A program made the position numbers and the translations under genes. Under the pieces are notes generated by a model. It saw nothing but the letters and a program-made list of their open reading frames with translations, was not told the DNA's origin and did not search any database. Source: Amphirosellinia nigrospora (Eukaryota > Ascomycota > Sordariomycetes > Xylariales > Xylariaceae). From it: DNA of 64,000 nucleotides. The stretch covers positions 1,736,001 through 1,800,000 of the forward strand of contig SCHM01000003.1 in NCBI GenBank assembly GCA_004123355.1, written 5' to 3'. Positions 18,575 to 61,348 of this stretch are shown here, piece after piece (positions within the stretch are counted from its first letter, which is position 1; each line of letters opens with the position of its first letter).

Positions 18575-19031
18575 ATGGGTTTCAAACACGATGCGCATAG
18601 TTACGAGCCTACATTAATCTTCCTCCCTATCGCGAGATCCCGTACATGTCACGAAGCAGGCAGCTACGATATCCAAGGCACAGTCCCCTCCTAGCAACCG
18701 CCGGGGTCGGGTTCAACCCCCTAGAGGCGATGGAGATCGACCACCAAGGGACAATAACGGGAATCATCCATTCGGCAACGGGAATGGAGGAGATAGAGAT
18801 AGAGGAGATAGAGATAGAAGAGATGGGGACAGAGGAGATGGAGATAGAGGAGATAGAGACAGAAGAGATGGGGACAGAGGAGATGGAGATAGAGGAGATA
18901 TAAACGGAGGGGATCGGAGTGGCCCAGCCGTACTACATCAAACCTCGCATATTGGATCGCATTGTGGACAACCACCGGATGAGTCGAAATGGAGATGGAA
19001 TTGTGTACGTCGGCACCTGCCTCCGGTATAG
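18575..19031 (+). CDS. Gly-Asp-Arg repeat hypothetical protein
   Basis: Reads from ATG 18575 (MGFKHDAHSYEPT), then after a frame change continues as PPYREIPYMSRSRQLRYPRH and, after a second frame change beside CCCC (18685-18688), as SNRRGRVQPPRGDGDRPPRD and NNGNHPFGNGNGGD. A run of GDRDRGD-type repeats follows (18786-18903). The C-terminus is GQPPDESKWRWN...HLPPV with a stop at 19029-19031. The product would be highly basic/acidic and disordered, about 150 residues. Family not recognised. A related 3' segment is duplicated at 21390-21647. Confidence 0.45.
18786..18903 (+). repeat. tandem repeat, 45-nt unit
   Basis: Purine-rich tandem repeat encoding GDRDRGD/RRDGDRGDGD. Two nearly perfect copies of a 45-nt unit (AGAAGAGATGGGGACAGAGG start) plus shorter partial units. 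Confidence 0.75.
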
Positions 19032-25661: not shown

Positions 25662-27080
25662 ATGCCGTCACAACCTTCGAGCTCCCCGAGCGACACAAGT
25701 ATCAGAATGGCTTTGGGTCCTATTTTGAGTAGGCTACCCTTCACCCGGAGAATCCGATGTGCCACATGCTTACCTGATCAGAACCGAAGCTGTCGTAGGG
25801 GCGCTGCCCATCGGCCAGAACTCGCCGCAGAAGCCCCCATACGGACTCTATGCCGAGAAGCTCTCGGGCACAGCCTTCACGGCACCAAGACACGAGAATC
25901 AACAATCATGGCTATACCGGATACTGCCGTCCTGTGCTCACCACCATTCGCTTCCGTAGCCGACGACCTTTCAAGTCGGACAAGCCGAGCGACCCGCGAG
26001 ACTCGAGTACATTCCCAACCAGCTACGATGGGACCCCTTCGACCATGACACCGAGACTGACTTCGTGTCTGGGATCCGCCTCGTTGCAGGCGCCGGCGAC
26101 CCTACTCTGAAACAGGGTATCGGCATCTACATATACTCTGCTGGCAAATCGATGGATGAACACTCCGCTTCTACTCGGCCGACGGAGATCTGTTGATCGT
26201 ACCGCAAGAGGGCACCCTCGACAATCAGGACAGAGCTGGGATGGCTCCTTGTCCGGCCTATGGAGATATGTGTCATCCACGCGGCATCAAGTATCAGGTC
26301 CATCTACCGTCCGGCCCAGCACGGGGCTATGCTCTGGAATGTGTATCAGGGACACTTCACCCTTCCGGAATTGGGTCCCATTGGTTCCAACTGTCTCGCC
26401 AACGCTCGTGATTTCCAGGCCCCTGTGGCCTCCTTTCTCGAGGACTATGGTGCCACTGCTTCAGAGGGACCAAATACTTACACAATCACCGTCAAGTTCA
26501 ATAATTCGCTATTTCAGACCAAGCAGCCCCATACGCCATTTGATGTCGTAGCATGGCACGGGAACTACTATCCTTATAAGTACGATCTCGGCCGGTTCAA
26601 CACCATCGGCTCCATCTCGTACGATCATCCGGATCCGTCTATTTTCACGGTGCTGTCGGCCCTATCAGACCATCCAGGGACCGCGATCGCGGATTTCGTC
26701 ATCTTCCCGCCCCGCTGGCTGTCGCTGAAAGGTACGTTCCGTCCGCCATGGTACCACCGGAACACCATGTCTGAATTCATGGGCCTAATCGCGGGTGATT
26801 ACGATGCAAAGAAGGGGGCAGGGGGGATTCATGCCTGGGGGTGCCAGCTTACACAACGTGATGAGCGGCATGGGCCCGACGCCAGCAGCTTTGAGGGCGC
26901 GAGCAATGCGGAACTGAAGCCGACCATGGTAGGCAAGGGGAGTTGCGCATTTATGTTGAGAGCTGCCTGATGGTCGGTGTCACGGAATGGGGCCTCAAGA
27001 TGTGCAGAAAGGTGCAGGAGGGCTATAGCGATGAGAGCTGGGGTGGTGTCAAGGTCCATTGGAAACGACCAGAACAATGA
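25662..27080 (+). CDS. hmgA: homogentisate 1,2-dioxygenase, frame-disrupted
   Basis: Opens ring-cleaving step three of tyrosine breakdown (homogentisate to maleylacetoacetate, Fe(II) enzyme). Family signatures in order: [11 protein letters not shown], a 53-nt intron (25729-25781, GTAGGC...TCAG), [20 protein letters not shown] with [12 protein letters not shown]-like continuation, [100 protein letters not shown] and GGASLHN followed by [18 protein letters not shown]. The iron ligands (His in YHRN, Glu in SEFMG, His in SLHN) are present. The frame changes at least seven times, mostly explained by single missing bases; the last, in ATGTTGAG near 26955, precedes [19 protein letters not shown]. 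It is either a pseudogene or a correct gene in poor sequence. Confidence 0.85.
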
Positions 27081-35143: not shown

Positions 35144-37864
35144 CTATAAGAACGTATCTCTAAATGTAGGATACCCGCCACCACGCGGCGGATTGAACGG
35201 CATAGAGGCGCCAGGAGGGACTGTCGTGCCAACCACATTCGGATCCCCATGTCCCAGCGTCTCATGTAATGATGTATGTTTGACCGAGACGCCTTCGAAT
35301 ATTCTTGACATCTCGCTGGACATCTGCATGCCATTTTGCATGCCATCGAACCCGGGTGACTGCGGGACGTAAACAGTATGGCCGAAAGGAGAGCTAGTTG
35401 AGGGGCTTGGCCCTGGTTGGGTATGGCCGGTGGCTAGTCCGGCCATGGTGAGCGCAGCGCTCGAGTGGGGGTCTTCGGCAAGGCCGAGCCGAGGAGCCAC
35501 ATCCCGGAGTGATTTGACCATGCCCCAGAGACGTTTCGATACCCACGACTTAGCCGACATGTCTTTGAGGAGTTCTAGGGCCATGTAGAACTCGTCCCGA
35601 CACGATGAGCTGAAATTCACAGGTGCATGACACGACGCCACGAATAATATAGTTATGGCCGAGGAGAGGAATTGGTGATAGAATATTTGCATCTTTCGGT
35701 AGACATTCGTCGTGTTGTTGAGGTGTGCTAGGTATCGAATCGTGTTTTTGGCCAACTTGACGGCGACCTCGGCGTGACCCAAATTGTCCATGATACTACT
35801 ATGTGTGTGAAGGATCGGTGTATGGAGCCACATGCGGATTTGGTTGTACCGTAACCAGGTCCAGATTTGTAGACGCTGGATATCGTATTCTTTCTGTGAG
35901 TTTACCGGTGGGCTCAGATACTGAGGTAGGTCCTCCCAGTCGGACAGGGGTAGCTGCACTTCTTTTGGTAGCTCACTGTACCAGTTCTTAATTAGCTGGT
36001 CTAAATCTTCAATATCATCTACGGGGCTATCCATTTTAGCCCCAAATCGAAGTGTCGAACGGCGCGCCACACTTTTCCACTAAGTTTTGCGTATGTTATC
36101 ATCATCACCAGGAAAGGGTACTGTTCCTAACATGACAGAAATTAGAGAAACTGTTAAGCTAAACCTTCGATTGCCACAGGCTTGCAAGGGTCGCAATATC
36201 ACTTACGGGAGATGGTAGATCGGGATCAATCTCCTCATCCGCCACTACATATGGAAGACCGGCAGAGAATGCCCACCGACGATCCAAAACGTACACGCTC
36301 CAGAACGTGTTGACGGCCAATTTGCGTTCTTCATCGTCTTTGATCTGCTCAATAACATCGCGTCGGTGAAGACCCAATTCTAGGCAAAGTCGCACAACCT
36401 GGCCCATTACCCGCCAGCATAAGACTTCGTCCATGGAAAAGAAATGATATCCGGCCTAGTATAATTAGCTATTTTTGAGCAAAGAACACAAGACTGTGGG
36501 GGGCAGATAATCTGAAAGGGGGAGCAGACGTACAACCAGAGCCAAAAGGGTAGATTCTGGACAGTTGGCGGATCACTCATGAGCATCCTATCGGCAATGG
36601 GCTTAAGACCTGCGAAAATCTTTTGGGCTTGTGCGCTACTCCCGTGGCCCTCGACAAGTAAGCCACCACACAAGACAATCTTCAGCAGCAATGTATTCGG
36701 GTCGTTGATACCGCCGTTGTCACCGGCCAGGCCGTTTTTCTTAGCGGCCTGCATCCACGTAGCTAGCGTTTTAGCATGATTAATGATCGTGTCGATGCGA
36801 AGAACTGGATACATGATGCCCACTTCTTCCTCGTAGATGCGGCATAGACGAACCATCTCGTCTTTATCAAAATCCCATAGTGGATCGGACATAAAACTCT
36901 CGACGGATGGCACAACACAGGCGCTAGCTTAGGAGAAGTGCTAGGCGTCTCCCGGGTAGGATCAGCCGTGTCAGCGCTGTCGTTGGGATAAGAATATCCC
37001 ATCTTATGCAATGTATTCTTGGCAACGTCGAGGCTGAAGCGATTGCTCGTGGGTCCTCGAAAGGCAACAGACGGCTGCCGTGGCTGCGGTAGCATCGTCA
37101 TCGTGGTCGACGTCGGCGTGCTCGAGGTCGAGGGTCCGGTAAGGATCCGGTCGGGTTGATGCAGAGGGGCGGCCCGCAAGGTTTCGGCTCGCAAGGAATT
37201 CAAGTTGTTGAACAGCGTCTCGACCTGCTCCTGCAAGTGATTGAGCTGACCGGCCATGTGCTTAAACTCGTCCGAGTCCTTGAAGCTGGTAGCGCAACAG
37301 TTGGGAGCGTATAAGCACTGCAGGTTGAGGTGACCGCAACGACCGCAAGGGGTCTCGCCATTGCATTTAATCTTGCGGCGCTTGCATTCGTTGCAGGCGA
37401 TGGATATGTACCGGTTCCGCTTGCTCCTCTGCTGAGGCCCCGATCTGGGGGCATTCTGGCCTTCATCGTCATCGTCGTCGGCGTCACCACCCGGGTTCTT
37501 CCGCTTTACACCGGCTACCGGACGGGTGCCGGGGTGGGCGCGCCGGGGGTCGAGGCGGCGATGGACGGTGTTGTAGAGGAGGTTATCGTGTCGCGTCGTG
37601 TAGCGGCAGCCTGTTTCTTGGTCCTCTTGTCAGATTTGGCAGCACTCTGGCGCGATTGCGTCCGTTGGGCGGTAGGAGGGGGGTTGGTCGACGACGCATC
37701 GGCGACCAGGGATTCTCCACCGCCGACACTCGCGATCCCGGCGATTGCTGTTGGAGATGAGGAGCTACCGGGCGTGACGGGGGCACGACGGCGGCGGCTT
37801 CAGAGGGATCGGGGAGAGTAGTCAGGTATCGCACCTCGCCGACTTGGTTCTCGAAGAACTCCAT
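35144..37864 (-). CDS. Zn2Cys6 transcription factor
   Basis: A DNA-binding Zn2Cys6 cluster lies at about 37290-37400: CNECKRRKIKCNGETPCGRC followed by GHLNLQC, with C-x2-C-x6-C-x5-C-x2-C-x6-C spacing. A coiled-coil-like HMAGQLNHLQEQVETLFNNL comes after it. The middle region has the fungal_trans pattern (DPLWDFDKDEMVRLC, EVLCWRVMGQVVRLCLELGL, VNTFWSVYVLDRRWAFSAGL). The C-terminus is Ser/Pro/Gly-rich and ends at 35144. Introns are present near 36458-36520 and 36104-36206. Frame changes occur beside GGGGG 37779-37783, CCGG 37518-37521, AAA 36054-36056 and near 36925. It lies among catabolic genes, which makes it a candidate pathway regulator; this is inference. Confidence 0.88.
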
Positions 37865-39339: not shown

Positions 39340-40683
39340 TCAAAGGGGCAGCGCGGTCTCAACTCGGCCAATACACTCGCCAAAGCCAATTCTCTGCCCC
39401 GGCTTGCCACAACCCCTGATGGTGATTGTGTCACCGTCCTTCAAGAACCGCCGAACATCCATACCGCAGAGCATGATTTCCTCCTTGCCGCCCTTGCTCA
39501 GCTCAAGGAGACTGCCGCTTTCTCGAGGGTCCGGCCCGCTGATGGTTCCCGAGCCTAGTAAGTCACCCGTGTTCATCGGGCAGCCGCCTAGGGAGTGGTG
39601 AGCTATCATCTGTGGAAATGACCACATGAGATGTTTCGAGCTTGTGCGGGAAAGTGTAGTGGTATCTCCCTCCGGGCTATAATGTGTCAGCCACCAAATT
39701 ATCCATCAAATTACGATACCGAATACTTACTTGTAATATCGACCTCGAGCTCGATATCGAAAACTGCGTCTTCTCTGCCATCTTTTAGGTAGCTCTGTAG
39801 CTCCGTCTTGTTTTCAATCGCCTTTGTGCGAAACGGCTCCAGGGCGTCCGCCAAGACGACCCAGGGGCTGATGGTCGAGGCAAAGTTTTTGCTATTGAAT
39901 GGGCCCAGCGGGACGTATTCCCACGTCTGGATATCGCGCGCGCTCCAGTCGTTCAGCAGGACGTACCCGAAGATGTGATCTTCGGCATCGGTGACCTTGA
40001 TGCGTGACCCATCTGGTTCGGTTTCGCGATGATGCAGCCTAATTCAAGTTCTATATCTAACCGTCTGCTGGGCCCTATGATGGGTTGCTTGGGCTCTGCT
40101 GTCGGGTCGAGCAGGATCTGCCCGTTTGGACGACGGATAGGCGTGCCCGAGACCACGACGCTGGAAGCCCGACCATGATACCCCACGGGTAGGTGCGTGT
40201 AGTTCGGCTGTAGAGCATTCTCTGGGCCACGAAACATGCAGCCAACGGCGAAGGCATGATGGTACCCCGCATAGAAATCTGTGTAATCCCGATGCTCACG
40301 GGGAGGTGAACTTTGACGCTTCTCCGAGGGACGAGTGACTTCTCTCGTAAATCAGTGTTATCTCTTAGCAACTCCGGTTGTGTCGTTTCCGCTGATAACA
40401 GCTGCTGTATGGTACTTCGCACTTGTCGATGCACACCGCGTCCCAATGCCGCGAACGCGTTGAGGTTCGGTTGAGAGAAGACGTTTCCGTCGCTTCTTAA
40501 TGCTGGAATGGCTCCGGTGAACTTGTCATACATAGCCAGGATCTTCAGATCAAGTACATAAGAGCCGATTGCGATGGCGGCATGAGGCGCGGGGTCGCTT
40601 GATGTACTTATTATTCCGAACGGAATATTAGCTAGAGAGAAAGGTGTCTCTGATGAGACGTCTGGTACCCAGGTAGAATTCAT
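39340..40683 (-). CDS. fahA: fumarylacetoacetate hydrolase (fumarylacetoacetase)
   Basis: Last enzyme of tyrosine breakdown, splitting fumarylacetoacetate to fumarate and acetoacetate. Signatures in order: [150 protein letters not shown] and a C-terminal GFGECIGRV. Catalytic His and metal-binding Glu/Asp motifs are all present. One 54-nt intron (GTAAGT...TTATAG) separates 40683-39731 from 39676-39340. Three missing bases are implied (beside GGGG 40300-40303, near 40012, and at CCC by the splice acceptor). Pairs functionally with the homogentisate dioxygenase at 25662-27080. Confidence 0.92.
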
Positions 40684-41816
40684 TGTATCTAGGTTTCTAC
40701 TCGATAAGTGAACTAGATTGAGCGAAAATGTAAGTACATGATGTAAGTACTTCCTCTAGATAGAGGTTGCTTGGAATAGATAGAAGCTTAGATGCGGCTT
40801 GGGAACCAGACTTCGAGATAGCCGACGCAAGCCGCGGCCATATTCCGCCTTGGATCCCGACCTCCGAGATAGCTTCACCTTTAAGGTTTCATGTAAAACT
40901 ACTTATCAATCAATGCAACTACACATCTACTAAGTTAGTTATGTCCCGTATAATTCTATCGCAATAATAAAACCTCAGAAGTAGGTATCGAAGGTTGCTT
41001 TCTCTGTCCGCTTACAGTTGTTATAATTCGAGGGGTGAGTATGGGAGATCCGCGAAGACAAGATATCAAAAATGACCATCTATTCTATTCCTTGTAGACA
41101 TCCACTTTCCGGGCATCCTTGAGGTGTTTTACATATTTAACCTTAGTTATTTGGATCCTACTATTATAATCGTAGGCGAGTTCTAGAATACGTATTTTCA
41201 CTAGTTGGTTAATTGCGATATCTGCGTCTTTGCTAAAGAACTACGCCGAAGTATTGTTATTGCGATTAGCTACATCATGATGAGAATCGTTGTCTGGCCT
41301 GGCCCTGTTAAACTCGTAGTAAGTTGGGCCGGACTTAGAAGTCTTGCTCAGTCTATCTAGTGAGTTTACATACTATTGTTTAATTATTTGATCATGTAAC
41401 TAAGCAAAGCTTACCGCAACTGAAATGGTTAATGGATCACAATGGGTTATAGTAGAAGACAAGAACAAGATTTGATAAAATGCCTTGACTTGTTAAATTG
41501 GCCGTATCATTACCCGGTATATATCATGAGTATAAAGAGAGCACATTTCTATACTAATTTGTCTGAACAATATACACTTTAGCGCGAGTTTTTACTGAGT
41601 TTACTAAATGATTAGAAGATTTGTAGGACTGTCGTATATAATGTAATATTATAATATACTTCAAGAAACCTATCCTTCAAAGCGCACATCTGCAATATAG
41701 CTATTAGGGATTAGGCATCCTAATTAGGGTGCATGACAACAAGGGCTGCCGTGAAAATGAGATTTGTAAGAAGCGGTCCTGATGTTATTATAGCGATGTA
41801 GGAAAAGGCCGATGTA
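40684..41816. other. AT-rich spacer
   Basis: Strongly AT-rich; no gene seen. Confidence 0.5.
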
Positions 41817-50841: not shown

Positions 50842-52205
50842 TTACAGTTGAACGCGCTCGATTTCGATAATACTCTCCACAGCATGACGTGCCTTCCAGA
50901 TCTTGACAATCTGTAAGCCCTCCACACTGCCGACCAGCTTATCCCACTGATCCTCGCTGCGCTCAAGCGATGCAAATAGTGCCATCATTGTCATATCAAG
51001 AGTGGTGACGGTCAATGGGGCGCTCGTGAGCTGACCAGCACCTCATGGAGTAGGATTTTCGAATAGCCTGGAGCCATGGCATCGCGTACGTTTTCTAGGA
51101 TTTTCTTCGCCGTGTCATCAGGCCAATCGTGAAGTACAATGTGAAAATAGTACACACGGGCCGCTTTGACGGGTTGGGGGGTAAAAAAGTCGTATGGGAA
51201 GGGGGTGATACCTGCATGGATCGTGAATTTTCCCAATACTTCCGGCAGATCCTGCAGAATGAGTTTCTCTTTAGGCACATCAGGGTGTTTTTCGAGGAAC
51301 TTCTCTATATCGTGCCCCTTGCTGCCGCCAATATCAACGATCAGAGCACGGTCGGGCTGTGAGGCTTGCATGATCTGGTTCGTGTCATAGAGTTCGACCC
51401 ACGACGTAAAGTTACCTGCTGAGTGACATCCCATTGCGTCCGCAAAAGCCTGGTTGGTCTCTTTTCTGGATGCTACGTATCCAAAGAAGGTCGACCCTTC
51501 TCCGTGAAGATGCTGAAAGTTGCTTTTCATCAGCTCTGTCGGGTTTTTATATCCAAACTTTTTGAAAAAGGATGGCAACGACAGCCAAAGCGGTCCAACT
51601 ACGTCGTGGTAGAAGCTCTCATAGATTGATGAAAAATCAGACTCCTTGCCAACCCTCTGTGACCAAGCAGTCGATGCATAGGTATCTACACTAATCTCGG
51701 TGATAAGGTGATCACCTGCAATCTGTTGAAGAAGACGCTCTTTGGTTGCAATGTTAGCTTTCAGTCATGGGATAGAATCATGCCACGAAGCAAGAAAAGC
51801 ACTTGTTGACCCTCTCTTGTCTGAGCATGCTGCATATAACTACACGCAAGAGACTAAGCTTCGCATTGCAACAACATAATGCTAGAGGAAGTCGAAAGAC
51901 AAGGAAACGGCAGACTAACTCAGCAACACAGGATCTGAGCCAGTCAGATCAGCGAGCTGGTGGGTGGACATGGGTTTGCTTCCAGCCTCAGCCCACTTCA
52001 CGAATAGGGACGTATCAATCAGTGTTGCGATGGCAGCCATGGTAGAGCCGTGGACCCAGGCATGGTCCCAAGCTATGTCCCATGGTGACTGAACCCTGCG
52101 TAGTGTGCCTTGAAGCTCCTCCAGTAGGAGAAGTCGATCATCGACAGATAGAGCCTGGGCATCAATGGCCTTCAGGCTGGAGATCATCTGCTCGACAGGT
52201 GACAT
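50842..52205 (-). CDS. O-methyltransferase (Methyltransf_2)
   Basis: Exon 1 (52205-51920, start MSPVEQMISSLKAID) encodes the dimerisation/winged-helix part (AIATLIDTSLFVKWAEAG, LADLTGSDPVLL). A 180-nt intron (GTTAGT...CAAAG) precedes exon 2 (51739-50842): RLLQQIAGDHLITEIS, then the SAM motif ALIVDIGGSKGHDIEKFLEK, LILQDLPEVLGKF, and the catalytic His in YYFHIVLHDWPDDTAKKILE. The end reads LTVTTLDMTMMALFASLERS to QIVKIWKARHAV...IERVQL, stop at 50842. One missing base near 51030 is implied. This is the fungal secondary-metabolite O-methyltransferase type. It is a candidate tailoring enzyme for the cluster 4 kb away, though several other genes intervene. Confidence 0.88.
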
Positions 52206-53289: not shown

Positions 53290-54797
53290 CTATTGTGATC
53301 TAGAGACGCGGACTTCATTCGTTACGTAGATATCGTTAGATACTGCCTCAGACGGAGTACCAGTCTCCTCGCCGGGCTGAGCTTTGCCATCCAGGAGCCC
53401 CTCCTGGTCGTTACCGGTGTACGGCGTGGTATCTCTTGCGTAGCATTCCGCAACAGTTGCCCCGTCTTCCACTGCAGTCAAGGTTAGATCATCGTACTTT
53501 CGAGCGCGAGCACGTTTGCCGCCACTTCCAAAAGTCAATTTGCTGAGTTTGAATCTGCCCTCTCCATTCGACTCATCGATGCCAGACCCTCGGCCCATGG
53601 CCCGTCTAATTATAACCTTGAAGAGAGGCAGGCAAACTGGAATGCAAATGCAGACCATAGTCACGGATTGTTCGATTGCGGACCATATGAGTAGGCCGAC
53701 GGTGTCGTCTATTTAGGTTATAAGATTCCATGCGCAGCATAGCTATTGCGATCGGACAGCGAATACGTACTTAGGTAATTGGGGCTCGATAAACCTCCTA
53801 CTTCTAACGCTCTCTGGATTCCGCTTCCTGCAGCACTTGAGACAACTCTCACTTAGCATGAACATGATCTAGACTTGCGCTGGTAACTTACAAGATACCC
53901 AGGCTCATACTCGCAAGAATCACGTATTTCTCTCGTTTATTCATCTGCAGGCCCCAGATAAATACCCATGGCAAGACGACGAAAACGATGTCGACGACGA
54001 CGGTAGCAACTGCAGAGCGTCGAGTCAGGGACGGGCAGGGACGGTGAGAAGATTCACCATAGGCAACTTGAGTAACGTACTATTCAGTGTTGTCGACGCT
54101 GGAATAGCGCTGATCGGACAGTACCCTCCCGGAATTCGTCGGTCCCATAGGTAAGGGAAAGGCCTACATCTGCTATGAGTTAATTAATATTCATTTGTAT
54201 TGTGGTTGTAAATCCATACTAACAAGTCAAGATCTATTAGCTTCAAGATCAATACTATGAAGTGGAAAGGACTGAGTAGGTAAGTGTTCAGAGTGCATCC
54301 TCACCTGTAGCCAGAATGCAAATAATACAGAAATGGAAGCCGCCATGACAACCCCCATCGCTATCATGATCACGACTCTTTGCCAGCGGACTACGACAAG
54401 TCGTAACAGGAATAAGCCGAGGGACCATTTGGCTATCGCTGTTCCGAGTACCGTGAACGTTTGGCCGATGGCTTCCCAAAGAATGGCTTCAACGATGTCA
54501 TCTTCGTTTCCAATCGCAGCATTGGTCTGACCAAGCCCCAAAGTAGCCGACTTGGTGTAAAAGGCAGTCATCAGCAACAAGCAGATCTATCTCGGTAGAA
54601 AGTCAGCCCTATTTATGGAGTCTTAACACCAAAGAACTGGTGACTGACAAAGGCGAGGATAAAACAACGTCGTCGCCGCCAACCGCGCGCATTATAACGA
54701 GTCGCGTGTAAAGTCGCAATACTAGAAACACCAAGGTGAGGCCTGTGACGGCCCACATCAAGGAGATGGCACCAACGCCATTGCTCTTGATCGCCAT
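53290..54797 (-). CDS. fungal rhodopsin-like integral membrane protein
   Basis: Five or six exons encode a seven-helix protein. Helices visible in order include ISLMWAVTGLTLVFLVLRLY, a helix with ILAFV, LLLMTAFYTKSATLGLGQ, FTVLGTAIAKWSLGLFLLRL, VVIMIAMGVVMAASISVLFA, VATVVVDIVFVVLPWVFIWG, and QSVTMVCICIPVCLPLFKVI near the end. The hydrophilic C-tail ends VSRSQ at 53290. The pattern, with WDRRIPGGYC between helices, is that of the fungal integral membrane/rhodopsin-domain family often related to Pth11-type receptors but lacking the CFEM domain. One missing T is implied in TTTT at about 54661-54664. The role is unknown; signalling or metabolite sensing is a guess. Confidence 0.8.
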
Positions 54798-56668: not shown

Positions 56669-58435
56669 ATGGTCCTTGTGAAGACCCTCGCTGTGGGCTT
56701 AGTCCTTCTGGTCTTGTTGAGACTGTCCCGTATTGGTCGAAGACCGAAGGACTTCCCTCCAGGGCCTCCGACACTGCCCGTGCTAGGAAATATCCATTTG
56801 GTGAGATTCGGTCTTCCTCCAGCTCAATTGGCCTGCAACTCTTTGTTCTAACTATCTACAGATCCCCAATCATGATGTGCACCTGCAGTTCCAAAGTTGG
56901 GCTAGGGAGTATGGACCGGTGTACAGTGTAATGTTAGGAAGCAAGTGTATGATCGTTCTGTCAAGTGATCAAGCTGTGAAAGAGATCCTGGACAAGAGAA
57001 GTAGCACGTCGAGTGACAGAATGGATTTGTATGTAGCCCATACGCTTGCTAGCGGTGGTCTGCGTGTCTTGACGATGGTGAGTGTTACATTGAAGATGAC
57101 TGAGTATCTAGGTTGCTAACGCTTATCCAGCGCTATGGGCAAACCTGGAGGATGGTAAGAAGTTAAATATCCCATTACTAAGTAGTGGAAACTCACGGTA
57201 TGTCAGATAAGACGAATCTTGCACCGCCTCCTCAACGTTCATGCTGCTAGTTCCTTTGAACAATATCAAGTTCTCGAAAGTCATCAGATGATGTATGACA
57301 TCCTACAAGAGCCGCAACGATTTACAGAGCATGTTCGACGCTTCGCTAACAGTATAACAACCACTGCCACCTTCGGGTATGAGTTACCTTGTTCGATATA
57401 AACTCTATACTGCCCTCTAGAAACAGAGACTAAATACTAGGTAGCAGGTACCGGACTCCAACATATAAAGATCCCCACTTTCAAGAATTGTTCAATATCT
57501 TCGGCGAATTTGTTCTACTTGCGCAGACTGGCGCTGCAGCCATTCTGGATTACATGCCCGCCCTGCAACTCCTACCTGCTTATCTTCTACCTCCAAAAAG
57601 ACGCGCCCAGGTCCATCATACGAGAGAAAAGTCTCTGTATAGATACCATTGGGATACAGCTAAAGGTAGTGTTATAAAATCAGCAAAACAGCCGATCCCA
57701 TCCTTTACCGTAGGCCTTGTGGAAGCGCAGAGGACATATGGATTCACGGATGATTTCGCTTCCTATATCACCGGTACACTGCTCGAAGCGGGGAGTGACA
57801 CAACCTCGAACACCCTGATAGGATTTCTTTCGGCTATGCTCATGTTTCCTGACGTACAGCAACGCGCCCAAGCGGAACTTGATAGAGTCATCGGGACTAA
57901 TCGGATGCCAGTTCTAGATGACGAACCACAGTTGCAGTATATCCGTGGATGCGTCAAGGAGTCTCTACGTTGGATGCCCACTACCATCCTTGGAGCAATA
58001 CCTCATGCATTAACAAAGGATGAGCACTATATGGGATTCCGTTTGCCCAAAGGAGCTGGCATACTCAACAACGTCTTCACCATCCATAACGACCCTACAC
58101 GCTATCCGGAACCCCATCGTTTCAGACCGGAACGCTTCAAAAATGATCGACAGTCATTTTTCGATGCCGCAACGAATCCAGATGTGTCTAAGCGTGATCA
58201 CTTTACCTTTGGGGCCGGTCGCCGGATTTGCCCCGGGATTCACGTTGCAGAACGAAATCTGTTTCTGGCAATCTCTAGGCTATTATGGGCATTTGACTTC
58301 CGCTGCCCGCGAGATCAGAATGGATGCGGGACCGAGCTGCGGCCTGATCCTTCCAAGGTAACCCAAGGCTTCGTATGTGCCCCAATCCCTTCAAGGCCAT
58401 CATCACTCCGCGAGATGCTAGAAGGGCCGAACTGA
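56669..58435 (+). CDS. cytochrome P450 monooxygenase
   Basis: Five exons (56669-56800, 56862-57077, 57131-57154, 57207-57376, 57448-58435) join in frame to an intact 509-residue protein. Domains: N-terminal membrane anchor (MVLVKTLAVGLVLLVLLRLS), proline-rich hinge (DFPPGPPTLPVLGNIHL), I-helix AGSDTTSNTLIGFLSAM, ExxR in KESLRWMP, PERF in HRFRPERFKN and heme-binding FGAGRRICPGIHVAE with the Cys ligand. It resembles the CYP families related to O-methylsterigmatocystin oxidoreductase. It is ER-bound and would need an NADPH P450 reductase. Its position 0.5 kb from the UstYa gene makes it a likely tailoring enzyme of the peptide cluster. Confidence 0.93.
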
Positions 58436-58960: not shown

Positions 58961-59821
58961 CTAGTTCACAATACCACCTTCCTCATTGTATCTATGCTCA
59001 CTTGTCCACTTCTTCAGAGCCTGAAAATCCCGACATCGGTGGACAGTTCCCCATCCTCGGACGCCACCAATAGTTTCGTTCTTTTCCTCCAAAGTCGAAT
59101 CTGCGGCACACATGAGAGCCTGACGAATATAATCGAAGCAATGCCGCATATGCGCAGCTGATGTTGCGTGCGAGTGGTGTGCTGTAGTAGCGGTTTCCCT
59201 CTCAGAGCCTGCAGCAGCGTAGTAGCCACGACGCAACATATCCTATGTGCCGCACACGTCAACAAATTGGGCTTGGCATGCAAGGTCTGGTCAGAATCAT
59301 ACTAAACAGTGCAGCTGGTGGAACACCGACACACAGTAGTGCCGCTCATTTCCAGAATCATTGTCAATTACCTTCACAAAGCCTCGGCCCTCTGCCAGTG
59401 TGTGTTAGAAGGTTGTGGTGCGTCACTATGTGAGACTAGATGACACCTTACGAGGGATCAAGCTCTCCCACGCAGAATTAGAGACGTCCGAAGCCGATTG
59501 GGTGTATGCCGAATCCTCAAGAAACACCATTTTACCGGTCGATATGATTGGTGCGGTCTCATTCTCGTGCATCGCGAGTCCTGCATCAGATTAGTAATGT
59601 CTATCGAGATGGCGTAGGTGCAGCCCACTGGCAGAACACATCATTTGCCTGGAAAGCGATCCCACCAAGATGCCAAAGACCAAGGTAGTAAGTAGTACCA
59701 GCGCCTCGCGGTTCCTCTGGAAAGCGTGTTTGAGCGATAGACGCGATTCTAGCCTCTCCTGTTGCCCGTGACAGTCCTGGCAAAGAACAGAATGTCCATC
59801 GTACGGACTTTCAGTCCCCAA
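58961..59821 (-). CDS. UstYa-family oxidase (DUF3328)
   Basis: An N-terminal membrane helix (ALVLLTTLVFGILVGSLSRQ) is followed by a luminal domain. Two 60-nt introns (59392-59451 and 59243-59302) join AWESLIP, GRGFVKVIDNDSGN, VSVFHQLHCL and AHMRHCFDYIRQALMCAADS. The two HxxHC motifs (HQLHC, HMRHC) that define active UstYa enzymes are both present, and the C-terminus has GGVRGWGTVHRCRDFQAL as usual. UstYa proteins form oxidative cross-links in ribosomal peptides such as ustiloxin, asperipin and phomopsin. The 5' end is uncertain: the frame is open to about 59821 without a clear ATG, and a TAA at 59591-59593 interrupts exon 1. It is divergently placed from the precursor gene at 60389, sharing about 570 bp of upstream DNA. 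Confidence 0.88.
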
Positions 59822-60388
59822 AAAGGGGTTGAGGATGAAATAGGAGACGTGGGCATGACAATGATAAGGCTGGGATGTGAAACGAAATTAGTTCAGCAGA
59901 GTCTCTTTGCGAGCAGAATATGTGTGATGTCGAAGTTTAAGTGAAGTCTGAAAGCCGGTATTAATTCCCGAATCTTATCTACTTGCCAAGACAGTTTGTC
60001 GGGCCCGGGATTTACTAGCTTCGGGAAGGTCGATGATTAACATTCTTATCCTGGGCAGTGTTAGGCGATGGATCTGAACTTGGAGAACTCTGATTGAAGA
60101 TATGCTCATGTGACGATTACCTGCATTAATGGTACTGCCACAGTCAGGCAACAAAGAAGGCAATTTCACTTTCCTTCGGCAAATTGCGCTTTCAATAACC
60201 CACAGCCCAAAGTGTGGCAAGATGCTATAAATTATATATATATGAAACCTAGACGTCTGTTCTTCGAAATGTTTCTTTCAGGAACTCACAGCTTCTTGTG
60301 CAACGTGATTTTATATTAGCTTTCGATATTTATTTATTATCATCAACTTACAATCGTTCAATCGACACAACATCAGACTGATTGAAAC
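59822..60388. promoter_or_regulatory. bidirectional promoter of UstYa and precursor genes
   Basis: 567 bp between divergent genes. A strong TATA-type run lies at 60224-60242 on the plus strand (TATAAATTATATATATATG), about 150 nt before the precursor ATG. No gene seen inside. A shared promoter implies co-expression. Confidence 0.5.
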
Positions 60389-61348
60389 ATGAAACCATTT
60401 TCCGTTGTGATTACCATCGCCTATCCATCAATACCGTAAAGGCATTGCCGACGAAGGACAAAGGTACGTGGGTACAATCATGTCCACATTCGTCAACTAA
60501 CTGTGTACCCAGACGATGCTACCAACTGGTACTCTGATTCAGCTGCTGGGGTTGCCGAATCCCTCAAACGCGATGACGCTACTAACTGGTACTCTGATTC
60601 TGCTGCTGGGGTTGCTGAATCTCTATCGAAGCCAAAACGCGATGACAGTACCAACTGGTACTCTGATTCCGCCTCAGGCGTTGCTGAATCCTTGTCGAAG
60701 CTGAAACGTAATGACAAAACCAACTGGTACTCTGATTCAGCATCTGGAATAGAGCAGTCTCTTGGGAAAAGGTCCATGACATCAGACGAGAAAGAAACGT
60801 ACGAGAAATCACTCAGAGACTGGATCTACGAGGATATGAGAAGTAAGCCCTTGCGAGAAAGTTCCGAACGAGGTAAGGCATTGTTCGAATTTACCCCCAA
60901 GCCACGCAACGATACGGTAGATCGTTGGCATGTGCCTGCTGAGCTGCAAGACCGCTTCAACGCCACAGATTCTGACGCTGAGCGGCGTTAGCATCTTAAA
61001 TTATTACCTGATGGTCACGGGCCGAGAGCCAAAGCCGGCTACCGAGCTCGGCTTCCAGCCAACATTCGACAAACCGGGCCTTACAGAGACAAACGAAGTT
61101 GGCTACGGATATGCCTTGGCCGGTCAACATCAGACTCACTGCACCGACTTTGTTGCCGACGCGATTGATATCGGAAAAGACAATTTGAACGACTTTTTTC
61201 TGAAGCATACTATTCACTGTCTGGGTCTTCTAAAGTACCTGGCACCTCAATTGACTATGAACAGCCTACAAGCTTCTTGTTAGCTCAGGCTAACGAGCGG
61301 GTAGCGAAGAACTATTCCCAGACAATCAAGGATGAGGTTGCAAATTGA
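60389..61348 (+). CDS. repeat RiPP precursor, apparently fused to a UstYa-like domain
   Basis: Exon 1 (60389-60463) encodes a signal peptide (MKPFSVVITIA and a hydrophobic continuation after one missing base at 60420) ending in a GTACGT donor. A 49-nt intron with CTAAC leads to exon 2 (60513-60986). This holds four tandem units sharing TNWYSDSA and ending in Lys-Arg, the Kex2 cleavage signal, then a tail (MTSDEKETYEKSLRDWIYED... NDTVDRWHVPAELQDRF). The frame then meets a TAG (60989-60991); a 40-nt candidate intron (60987-61026) would join it to a third exon with ELGFQPTFDKPGL, GYGYALAGQHQTHC and FLKHTIHCLGLLK, that is, two HxxHC motifs as in UstYa. One missing C near 61238 is needed to reach the stop at 61348; the model totals 290 residues. 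Signal peptide, Kex2 repeats with Trp-Tyr cores and an adjacent UstYa and P450 mark a dikaritin-type peptide pathway. Alternatively the 3' part is a separate gene. Confidence 0.75.
60513..60770 (+). repeat. four core-peptide repeats
   Basis: Units of about 20-23 residues: DDATNWYSDSAAGVAESLKR, two longer ones ending SKPKR and SKLKR, and a last one (NDKTNWYSDSASGIEQSL) ending GKR. TNWYSDSA is invariant; variation falls in the first three positions and after the core. Confidence 0.92.

What the first reader, a model, noticed from the sequence alone, without database searches (positions are those of the whole stretch)
60389..60770. New repeat-type RiPP precursor with Trp-Tyr core
Seen: a signal peptide, then four tandem units with invariant TNWYSDSA, each closed by Lys-Arg. 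Known: ustiloxin, asperipin, phomopsin and epichloecyclin precursors have this build, and Kex2 cuts at KR. Inferred: the pathway releases several closely related peptides whose Tyr/Trp are cross-linked. I do not recognise this core from described dikaritins.
Basis: partly seen in the sequence, partly recalled or inferred. Interest (0 to 1): 0.95.

Follow-up and report, generated by a model that had tools for sequence, protein, structure and literature searches.

The report
Fungal peptide precursor fused to enzyme
A fungal gene, damaged in this genome copy, belongs to a widespread and seemingly undescribed family in which short Trp-Tyr peptide repeats and a likely copper enzyme that could modify them are built as one secreted protein.

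Summary
The ATG at 60389 stops after 16 codons, a 49-nt intron-like stretch precedes the repeats, and the gene runs on to about 61348. Relatives show the main point: the repeats are the N-terminal half of one protein whose C-terminal ~180 residues carry a paired HxxHC motif, the dinuclear-copper signature of DUF3328/UstYa enzymes. A profile search listed 51 relatives: 46 hold both motifs, all 46 at the same 26-residue spacing; 33 hold 1-10 Trp-Tyr units; 30 hold both. In 32 of 33 a KR/RR lies between the last unit and the domain. AlphaFold2 puts each motif on its own confident helix. Best reading: a self-contained RiPP system, modified in cis, then cut by Kex2, parallel to plant fused BURP cyclases. 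Against: the domain scores below Pfam's UstYa cut-off, its similarity to UstYa vanishes when the motifs are masked, and it lacks that family's later cysteines and membrane anchor. The window copy has three frame breaks (pseudogene or assembly error). A separate UstYa and a P450 lie beside it. No product or chemistry is shown; I found no description in the papers searched.

The parts
60389..60439 (+). Start of signal peptide (MKPFSVVITIAYPSIP then stop); the frame closes here
   Evidence: relatives have an N-terminal hydrophobic segment
60421..60462 (+). Rest of the signal/pro region (LSINTVKALPTKDK), in another frame
   Evidence: read by eye
60464..60512 (+). Probable 49-nt GT-AG intron
   Evidence: no transcript data
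60515..60571 (+). Unit 1, DATNWYSDSAAGVAESLKR
60572..60640 (+). Unit 2, DDATNWYSDSAAGVAESLSKPKR
60641..60709 (+). Unit 3, DDSTNWYSDSASGVAESLSKLKR
60710..60772 (+). Unit 4, NDKTNWYSDSASGIEQSLGKR, ending in the KR before the domain
   Evidence: KR/RR between last unit and domain in 32 of 33 relatives
60773..60988 (+). N-terminal part of the conserved C-terminal domain (frame ends here)
60987..61259 (+). Motif-bearing part of the domain, in another frame (HQTHC 61128-61142, HTIHC 61206-61220)
   Evidence: 82% identical to P0001 residues 163-256
61262..61348 (+). C-terminal tail of the domain (QPTSFLLAQANERVAKNYSQTIKDEVAN), in a third stretch of frame
   Evidence: weak match to P0001 248-277, E 0.42
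58961..59860 (-). Separate orthodox UstYa/DUF3328 gene, divergent from the fused gene; last exon 58961-59239; start codon not resolved
   Evidence: PF11807 E 2e-18, 5.6e-27 over 58994-59707 with seven stops in one frame, which I read as introns; frames read by eye
56669..58435 (+). Cytochrome P450 gene, several exons
   Evidence: PF00067 E 3.4e-51 and 1e-8; ORF ends

Best explanation
The gene is a broken local copy of a family of secreted proteins in which a multicore RiPP precursor and a UstYa/DUF3328-like dinuclear-copper oxidase domain form one polypeptide. Proposed working in intact members: the protein enters the secretory pathway by its signal peptide; the disordered N-terminal repeats reach the helical HxxHC...HxxHC copper site of the same or a partner chain; there the Trp-Tyr of each unit is oxidised, most likely cross-linked; Kex2 then cuts at the KR/RR sites, freeing several peptides of about 18-21 residues and shedding the domain at the last site. 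The neighbouring UstYa and P450 may add further steps. Shown: repeats, dibasic sites, fusion, conservation of the paired motif, motif helices in a model, adjacency of UstYa and P450. Inferred: copper binding, oxidation, cis action, Kex2 release, any cross-link.
For: All 7 homologs of the repeat-plus-linker query carry the domain at least in part. 51 relatives by profile: 46 hold both HxxHC motifs with one spacing, 33 hold 1-10 units, 30 hold both features. KR/RR between last unit and domain in 32 of 33. Of 175 DS[ASPT] anchors in the N-terminal parts, 156 have WY just before. UstYa is the commonest Pfam hit, 34 of 47 members at E<=1. Profile-profile score 43 against 69 orthodox UstYa rows versus at most 22.7 in 100 column permutations. 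AF2 model: each motif on its own helix, domain blocks from residue 101 on at pLDDT 81-98, repeats disordered. DUF3328 CctR binds two copper ions through this paired motif (PMC12435403). A UstYa and a P450 gene lie next door.
Against: No member passes the Pfam cut-off (best P0006, 22 of 25 bits). The profile similarity falls to chance level, 16, when the motifs are masked, so convergence on the motif is not excluded. The later cysteines and membrane anchor of orthodox UstYa are missing. 33 of 149 linkers have a single Arg, 9 RK/KK and 2 none. P0044 keeps 8 units but its second motif is altered. No structural match in the PDB. No expression, product or chemistry data. The local copy is broken.
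Confidence: 0.6

Rival explanations
1. Ordinary split dikaritin-type pathway: the repeats are modified in trans by the neighbouring orthodox UstYa and P450; the fused domain is a dead or accessory UstYa relative that only recruits or chaperones.
For: Intact-looking P450 and a UstYa body beside the gene. The fused domain lacks cysteines that orthodox members have, and CctR needs disulfides for its dimer and activity (PMC12435403). P0044 keeps units without an intact second motif.
Against: Both motifs are kept at one spacing in 46 of 51 relatives, unexpected for a dead domain. Whether the neighbours recur beside relatives could not be tested.
Confidence: 0.22
2. Secreted linear peptides (hormone- or pheromone-like Kex2-processed repeat protein); the domain is a pro-domain or a metal-binding structural unit without oxidase activity.
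For: Repeat-and-dibasic build also serves pheromones (PMC7329392 and PMC6339444, passages). The similarity to UstYa rests on the motif alone.
Against: Trp-Tyr is far more constant than its neighbours (W not forced by the search pattern, Y forced). The paired motif is the copper signature of an oxidase family (PMC12435403).
Confidence: 0.13
3. Structural cell-surface protein with degenerate repeats.
For: Unit number varies from 1 to 10 and 35 of 149 linkers have no dibasic site (33 single Arg, 2 none).
Against: KR/RR at the junction in 32 of 33 and in 105 of 149 linkers; repeats predicted disordered in the one model made. I ran no wall-anchor prediction.
Confidence: 0.05

Closest known systems
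Dikaritins (ustiloxin, phomopsin, asperipin-2a) with their UstYa/DUF3328 oxidases
   Same: Signal peptide, tandem cores between dibasic sites, UstYa-type HxxHC motifs, UstYa gene nearby
   Different: In dikaritins precursor and oxidase are separate genes (PMC7329392, PMC9233826, passages); here the motif domain is fused to the precursor. Core is Trp-Tyr; domain is divergent, without the later cysteines
Plant fused burpitide cyclases (BURP domain, e.g. SkrBURP, AhyBURP)
   Same: Secreted multicore precursor joined to a His-rich copper cyclase; BURP and DUF3328 both described with a planar four-His, two-copper site (PMC12435403)
   Different: Unrelated domain: no BURP hit in the Pfam scans of relatives that I saw (the latter showing 25 of 51 families); fungal; Kex2-type sites
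Borosins (fungal, self-methylating precursors)
   Same: Precursor and modifying enzyme in one chain (PMC9233826, passage)
   Different: Methyltransferase with C-terminal core, not an N-terminal repeat array with an oxidase-like domain
Kex2-processed repeat proteins (KEPs)
   Same: Tandem units between dibasic sites behind a signal peptide
   Different: The survey section that I read whole treats DUF3328 only as neighbouring genes (PMC7329392 section 7); its supplementary lists were not readable here and may contain these proteins unremarked

Membership tests
DUF3328/UstYa (PF11807) | Pfam score over the curated cut-off | tested here: not met
   34 of 47 members match at E<=1; best is P0006 with 22.0 bits, cut-off 25
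DUF3328/UstYa (PF11807) | Paired HxxHC(x)nHxxHC motif | tested here: met
   46 of 51 relatives, spacing 26 in all 46; orthodox set mostly 33-36 (46 of 63). Window piece has both
DUF3328/UstYa (PF11807) | Homology beyond the motif | tested here: inconclusive
   Profile score 43 falls to 16 with motifs masked, permutations reach 22.7. Models share strand, motif helix, motif helix order but could not be superposed
DUF3328/UstYa (PF11807) | Cysteines after the second motif (disulfides in CctR) | tested here: not met
   38 of 46 have only the two motif Cys from 110 residues before the first motif to the end; orthodox: 'MC' in 50 of 58, C[RKW]D[FYW] in 48 of 58
DUF3328/UstYa (PF11807) | N-terminal membrane anchor | tested here: not met
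   Hydrophobic segment starts at residue 4-11 in 11 of the 12 relatives where one was found (P0009: 35); at 30-71 in 17 of 17 orthodox proteins of 280 aa or more. Simple hydrophobicity, different window lengths
DUF3328/UstYa (PF11807) | Copper and O2 dependent, dimeric | not testable with these tools
   needs biochemistry
Dikaritin RiPP | Signal peptide plus multicore precursor | tested here: met
   In relatives; in the window the signal region is out of frame
Dikaritin RiPP | Side-chain ether cross-link made by UstYa-family enzyme | not testable with these tools
   no product data
Kex2-processed repeat protein | Dibasic site between repeats | tested here: met
   Window 4 of 4 KR; family 105 of 149 linkers KR/RR, 9 RK/KK, 33 single R, 2 none
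Fused burpitide | BURP domain | tested here: not met
   Pfam scan of six relatives at E<=5 lists no BURP
Borosin | N-methyltransferase domain | tested here: not met
   Pfam scan of six relatives at E<=5 lists no methyltransferase

The most novel reading that the evidence does not exclude
A new class of self-modifying fungal RiPPs: precursor and DUF3328-type copper cyclase in one polypeptide, oxidatively cross-linking adjacent Trp-Tyr in up to ten cores in cis; the fungal counterpart of plant fused BURP cyclases, spread over several classes of Ascomycota.
Probability: 0.5. Interest if true: 0.9.

Novelty: new variant of a known kind. Interest (0 to 1): 0.8.

Why it matters
In the dikaritin pathways described in the papers I saw, substrate and UstYa enzyme are separate genes, so pairing precursor with oxidase is guesswork. 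A fused protein fixes the pairing by sequence and gives a one-gene system for testing DUF3328 copper chemistry. It adds a Trp-Tyr core not found in the papers searched. It would be a second case, after plant BURP proteins, of a core-repeat precursor joined to a copper cyclase, which makes convergent design in peptide macrocyclisation testable. Genome mining that looks for short precursors beside PF11807 genes may miss it: these proteins are up to 456 aa long and the best of them scores below the Pfam cut-off.

Tried and rejected
Stand-alone precursor as the general form: not supported. All 7 hits to the repeat-plus-linker query continue into the C-terminal domain, one of them (P0005) cut after the first motif. 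That search saw only proteins of about 87-278 aa.

A paralogue elsewhere in the genome: none found with three queries.

DUF6348 (PF19875) hits 11 of 47 members, best E 1.3e-9, better than UstYa's best E. In P0001 the hit lies at 43-109, mostly repeats; I take it as repeat-driven but did not test that.

Sequence homology to UstYa beyond the motif: not supported once the motifs are masked.

Genome neighbourhood in other fungi: not testable; the contig collections open to me are prokaryotic or viral and metagenome scans were capped at 0.

Pseudogene or assembly error: not decided. The P450 reads intact through its introns (by eye). The nearest ATG of the UstYa neighbour is in another frame than its body. 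The window piece has a short end branch, 0.077, so any decay would be recent.

Conservation figures: Y is 100% because the search pattern demanded it; the fairer figure is 156 of 175 anchors with WY.

Papers: ten searches. No listing or passage that I saw describes a precursor fused to a UstYa domain, and no paper held any of 11 variants of the core string. Chiang et al. 2025 is not held. Supplements were not searchable.

Full report
What is in the sequence. The repeats are there. On the + strand, in the open frame 60440-60988, four units carry TNWYSDSA at 60521, 60581, 60650 and 60719, and each ends in KR. Successive units start 20, 23 and 23 residues apart. Differences between units are mostly silent (pooled pS 0.65, pN 0.17), so the peptide sequence has been under selection. 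The signal peptide is a different matter. The ATG at 60389 opens a frame that stops at 60437. The residues that would follow sit in another frame and lead to a 49-nt GT-AG stretch, 60464-60512, that ends just before the repeats and that I read as an intron.

The gene is longer than reported. A search with the repeat-plus-linker ORF found seven proteins, among them Biscogniauxia marginata P0001, Nemania bipapillata P0003 and Xylaria scruposa P0006. All run on past the last dibasic site into a conserved domain of about 180 residues; six have both HxxHC motifs, and P0005 is cut after the first. In the window that domain is present in three pieces lying in different frames: 60773-60988, 60987-61259 and 61262-61348. 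With the break in the signal region this makes three frame breaks in 960 bases. I searched the pieces apart and mended nothing.

The family. A profile of the domain listed 51 proteins; only the 8000 candidates sharing most words were scored. The 14 named ones are Ascomycota: Xylariales (Biscogniauxia; other Xylariales recalled), Dothideomycetes (Zopfia; Periconia, Paraconiothyrium, Cladosporium and Trypethelium recalled) and Botrytis cinerea (Leotiomycetes, recalled). 46 of 51 hold both motifs, with a 26-residue step in all 46. The other five are P0005, P0044 (second motif altered), P0046, P0050 and P0051. 33 of 51 hold 1 to 10 Trp-Tyr units, 182 units in all; 30 hold both features; the 18 without units are 86-235 aa long. 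All 12 proteins in which a simple scan found a strong hydrophobic segment in the first 45 residues have units. Of 175 DS[ASPT] anchors in the N-terminal parts, 156 are preceded by WY. Weighted per protein, W is 98%, S(+4) 92% and D(+3) 89%, while the residues on either side of WY vary; Y is 100% only because the pattern demanded it.

Processing sites. Between the last Trp-Tyr and the domain a KR or RR is found in 32 of 33 proteins, RK/KK in one. Between units the count is 105 of 149 KR/RR; 9 have RK/KK, 33 a single Arg and 2 none. Kex2 release is therefore well supported at the junction and in the window (4 of 4) but not uniform in the family.

What the domain is. Pfam names UstYa as the commonest hit: 34 of 47 members at E<=1, best 1.6e-4 (P0006, 22.0 bits, cut-off 25). 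DUF6348 hits 11 of 47, with a better best E (1.3e-9); in P0001 that hit covers mostly repeats. Profile-profile comparison of 43 domain rows with 69 orthodox UstYa rows gives score 43, against at most 22.7 in 100 column permutations and 12.2 for the reversed profile. Masking the motifs drops it to 16, within the permutation range. The sequence evidence is thus the paired motif itself. AlphaFold2 of P0001 (47-row alignment, mean pLDDT 75.9, pTM 0.64) gives block means of 81-98 from residue 101 on, below 50 for residues 19-88 (most of the repeats), and one motif on each of two successive helices, 208-225 and 232-248, the first preceded by a short strand. A model of an orthodox UstYa (P0053, mean pLDDT 82.5) shows strand 69-73, motif helix 75-88 and motif helix 109-126 with a helix between. 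I could not superpose them. The CctR paper (PMC12435403, main text read whole) reports that HxxHC(x)nHxxHC binds two copper ions, places the motifs on paired helices in an AlphaFold model, finds need of O2 and electrons, and notes a planar four-His arrangement like that of plant BURP cyclases.

Where it departs from UstYa. The relatives start with a hydrophobic segment at residue 4-11 (P0009: 35), while 17 of 17 orthodox proteins of 280 aa or more have theirs at 30-71. Motif spacing is 26 against mostly 33-36 (46 of 63). 38 of 46 domains have no cysteine outside the motifs, while orthodox proteins have a later 'MC' (50 of 58) and C[RKW]D[FYW] (48 of 58). CctR needs disulfides for its dimer and lost activity on reduction. 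I therefore call the domain UstYa-like and leave membership open.

Neighbours. A separate UstYa gene (58961 to about 59860, -) and a P450 (56669-58435, +) lie next to it. An O-methyltransferase fragment lies at 51015-51764 - and fungal-rhodopsin fragments at 53293-54586 -. In 19 kb downstream (L027, L028) I scanned 7 of 37 ORFs of at least 90 aa and none was of RiPP type. No second copy was found in the 48-Mb genome with three queries; the genome has at least 57 exon-level UstYa matches at E<=0.01.

State of the local copy. Three frame breaks with a short end branch (0.077) mean recent loss or assembly error. The P450 nearby reads intact by eye; the UstYa neighbour's start is unresolved. I cannot decide.

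Descent. On the domain tree (44 rows) the window piece is 93% identical over 90 columns to the Periconia protein and sits with it in a six-row clade (100/99) that also holds Xylariales proteins. Transfer between classes is possible; the tree is small and many forks are open.

Mechanism. Signal peptide to the secretory pathway, copper loading of the domain, oxidation of Trp-Tyr units by the joined domain, Kex2 cutting, release of peptides and shedding of the domain. Only the anatomy is shown. Each chemical step is inferred from DUF3328 and BURP precedents (PMC12435403 main text; PMC11253845 and PMC12186524, passages).

Novelty. Ten searches of open-licence papers gave no listing or passage describing a precursor fused to a UstYa domain, and no text with the unit strings. 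Passages were read of PMC7329392 (and its section 7 whole), PMC6339444, PMC12048977, PMC12186524, PMC11253845 and PMC9233826; the other listed papers were seen as listings only. Subscription papers and supplements remain unsearched.

Noticed in passing
L027:6300-8978 (-), genome C5:1805300-1807978, outside the window: An 893-aa ORF joins a DyP-type peroxidase C-terminal match and a pyruvate-formate-lyase-like match; the next ORF (L027:5189-6091 -) holds the end of the latter.
   Followed up: no
window 26197-26967 +, 40078-40755 -, 36766-37629 -: Homogentisate dioxygenase, fumarylacetoacetase N-terminal and Zn2Cys6 regulator matches 20-35 kb upstream: aromatic amino acid breakdown genes.
   Followed up: no
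window 60987-61259: Domain piece is 93% identical to a Periconia protein and groups with it inside a clade with Xylariales proteins: possible transfer between fungal classes.
   Followed up: partly
P0044 and P0045 (homologs): P0044 keeps eight counted units but its second motif reads PIVDC, while its near relative P0045 keeps HIVHC: possible loss of the copper site in one lineage.
   Followed up: no
window 58961-59860 (-): The UstYa neighbour's nearest ATG lies in another frame than the gene body.
   Followed up: partly
window 18787-18900: A 45-bp tandem repeat (2.5 copies, 97% match) of GAGGAGAT-type units.
   Followed up: no
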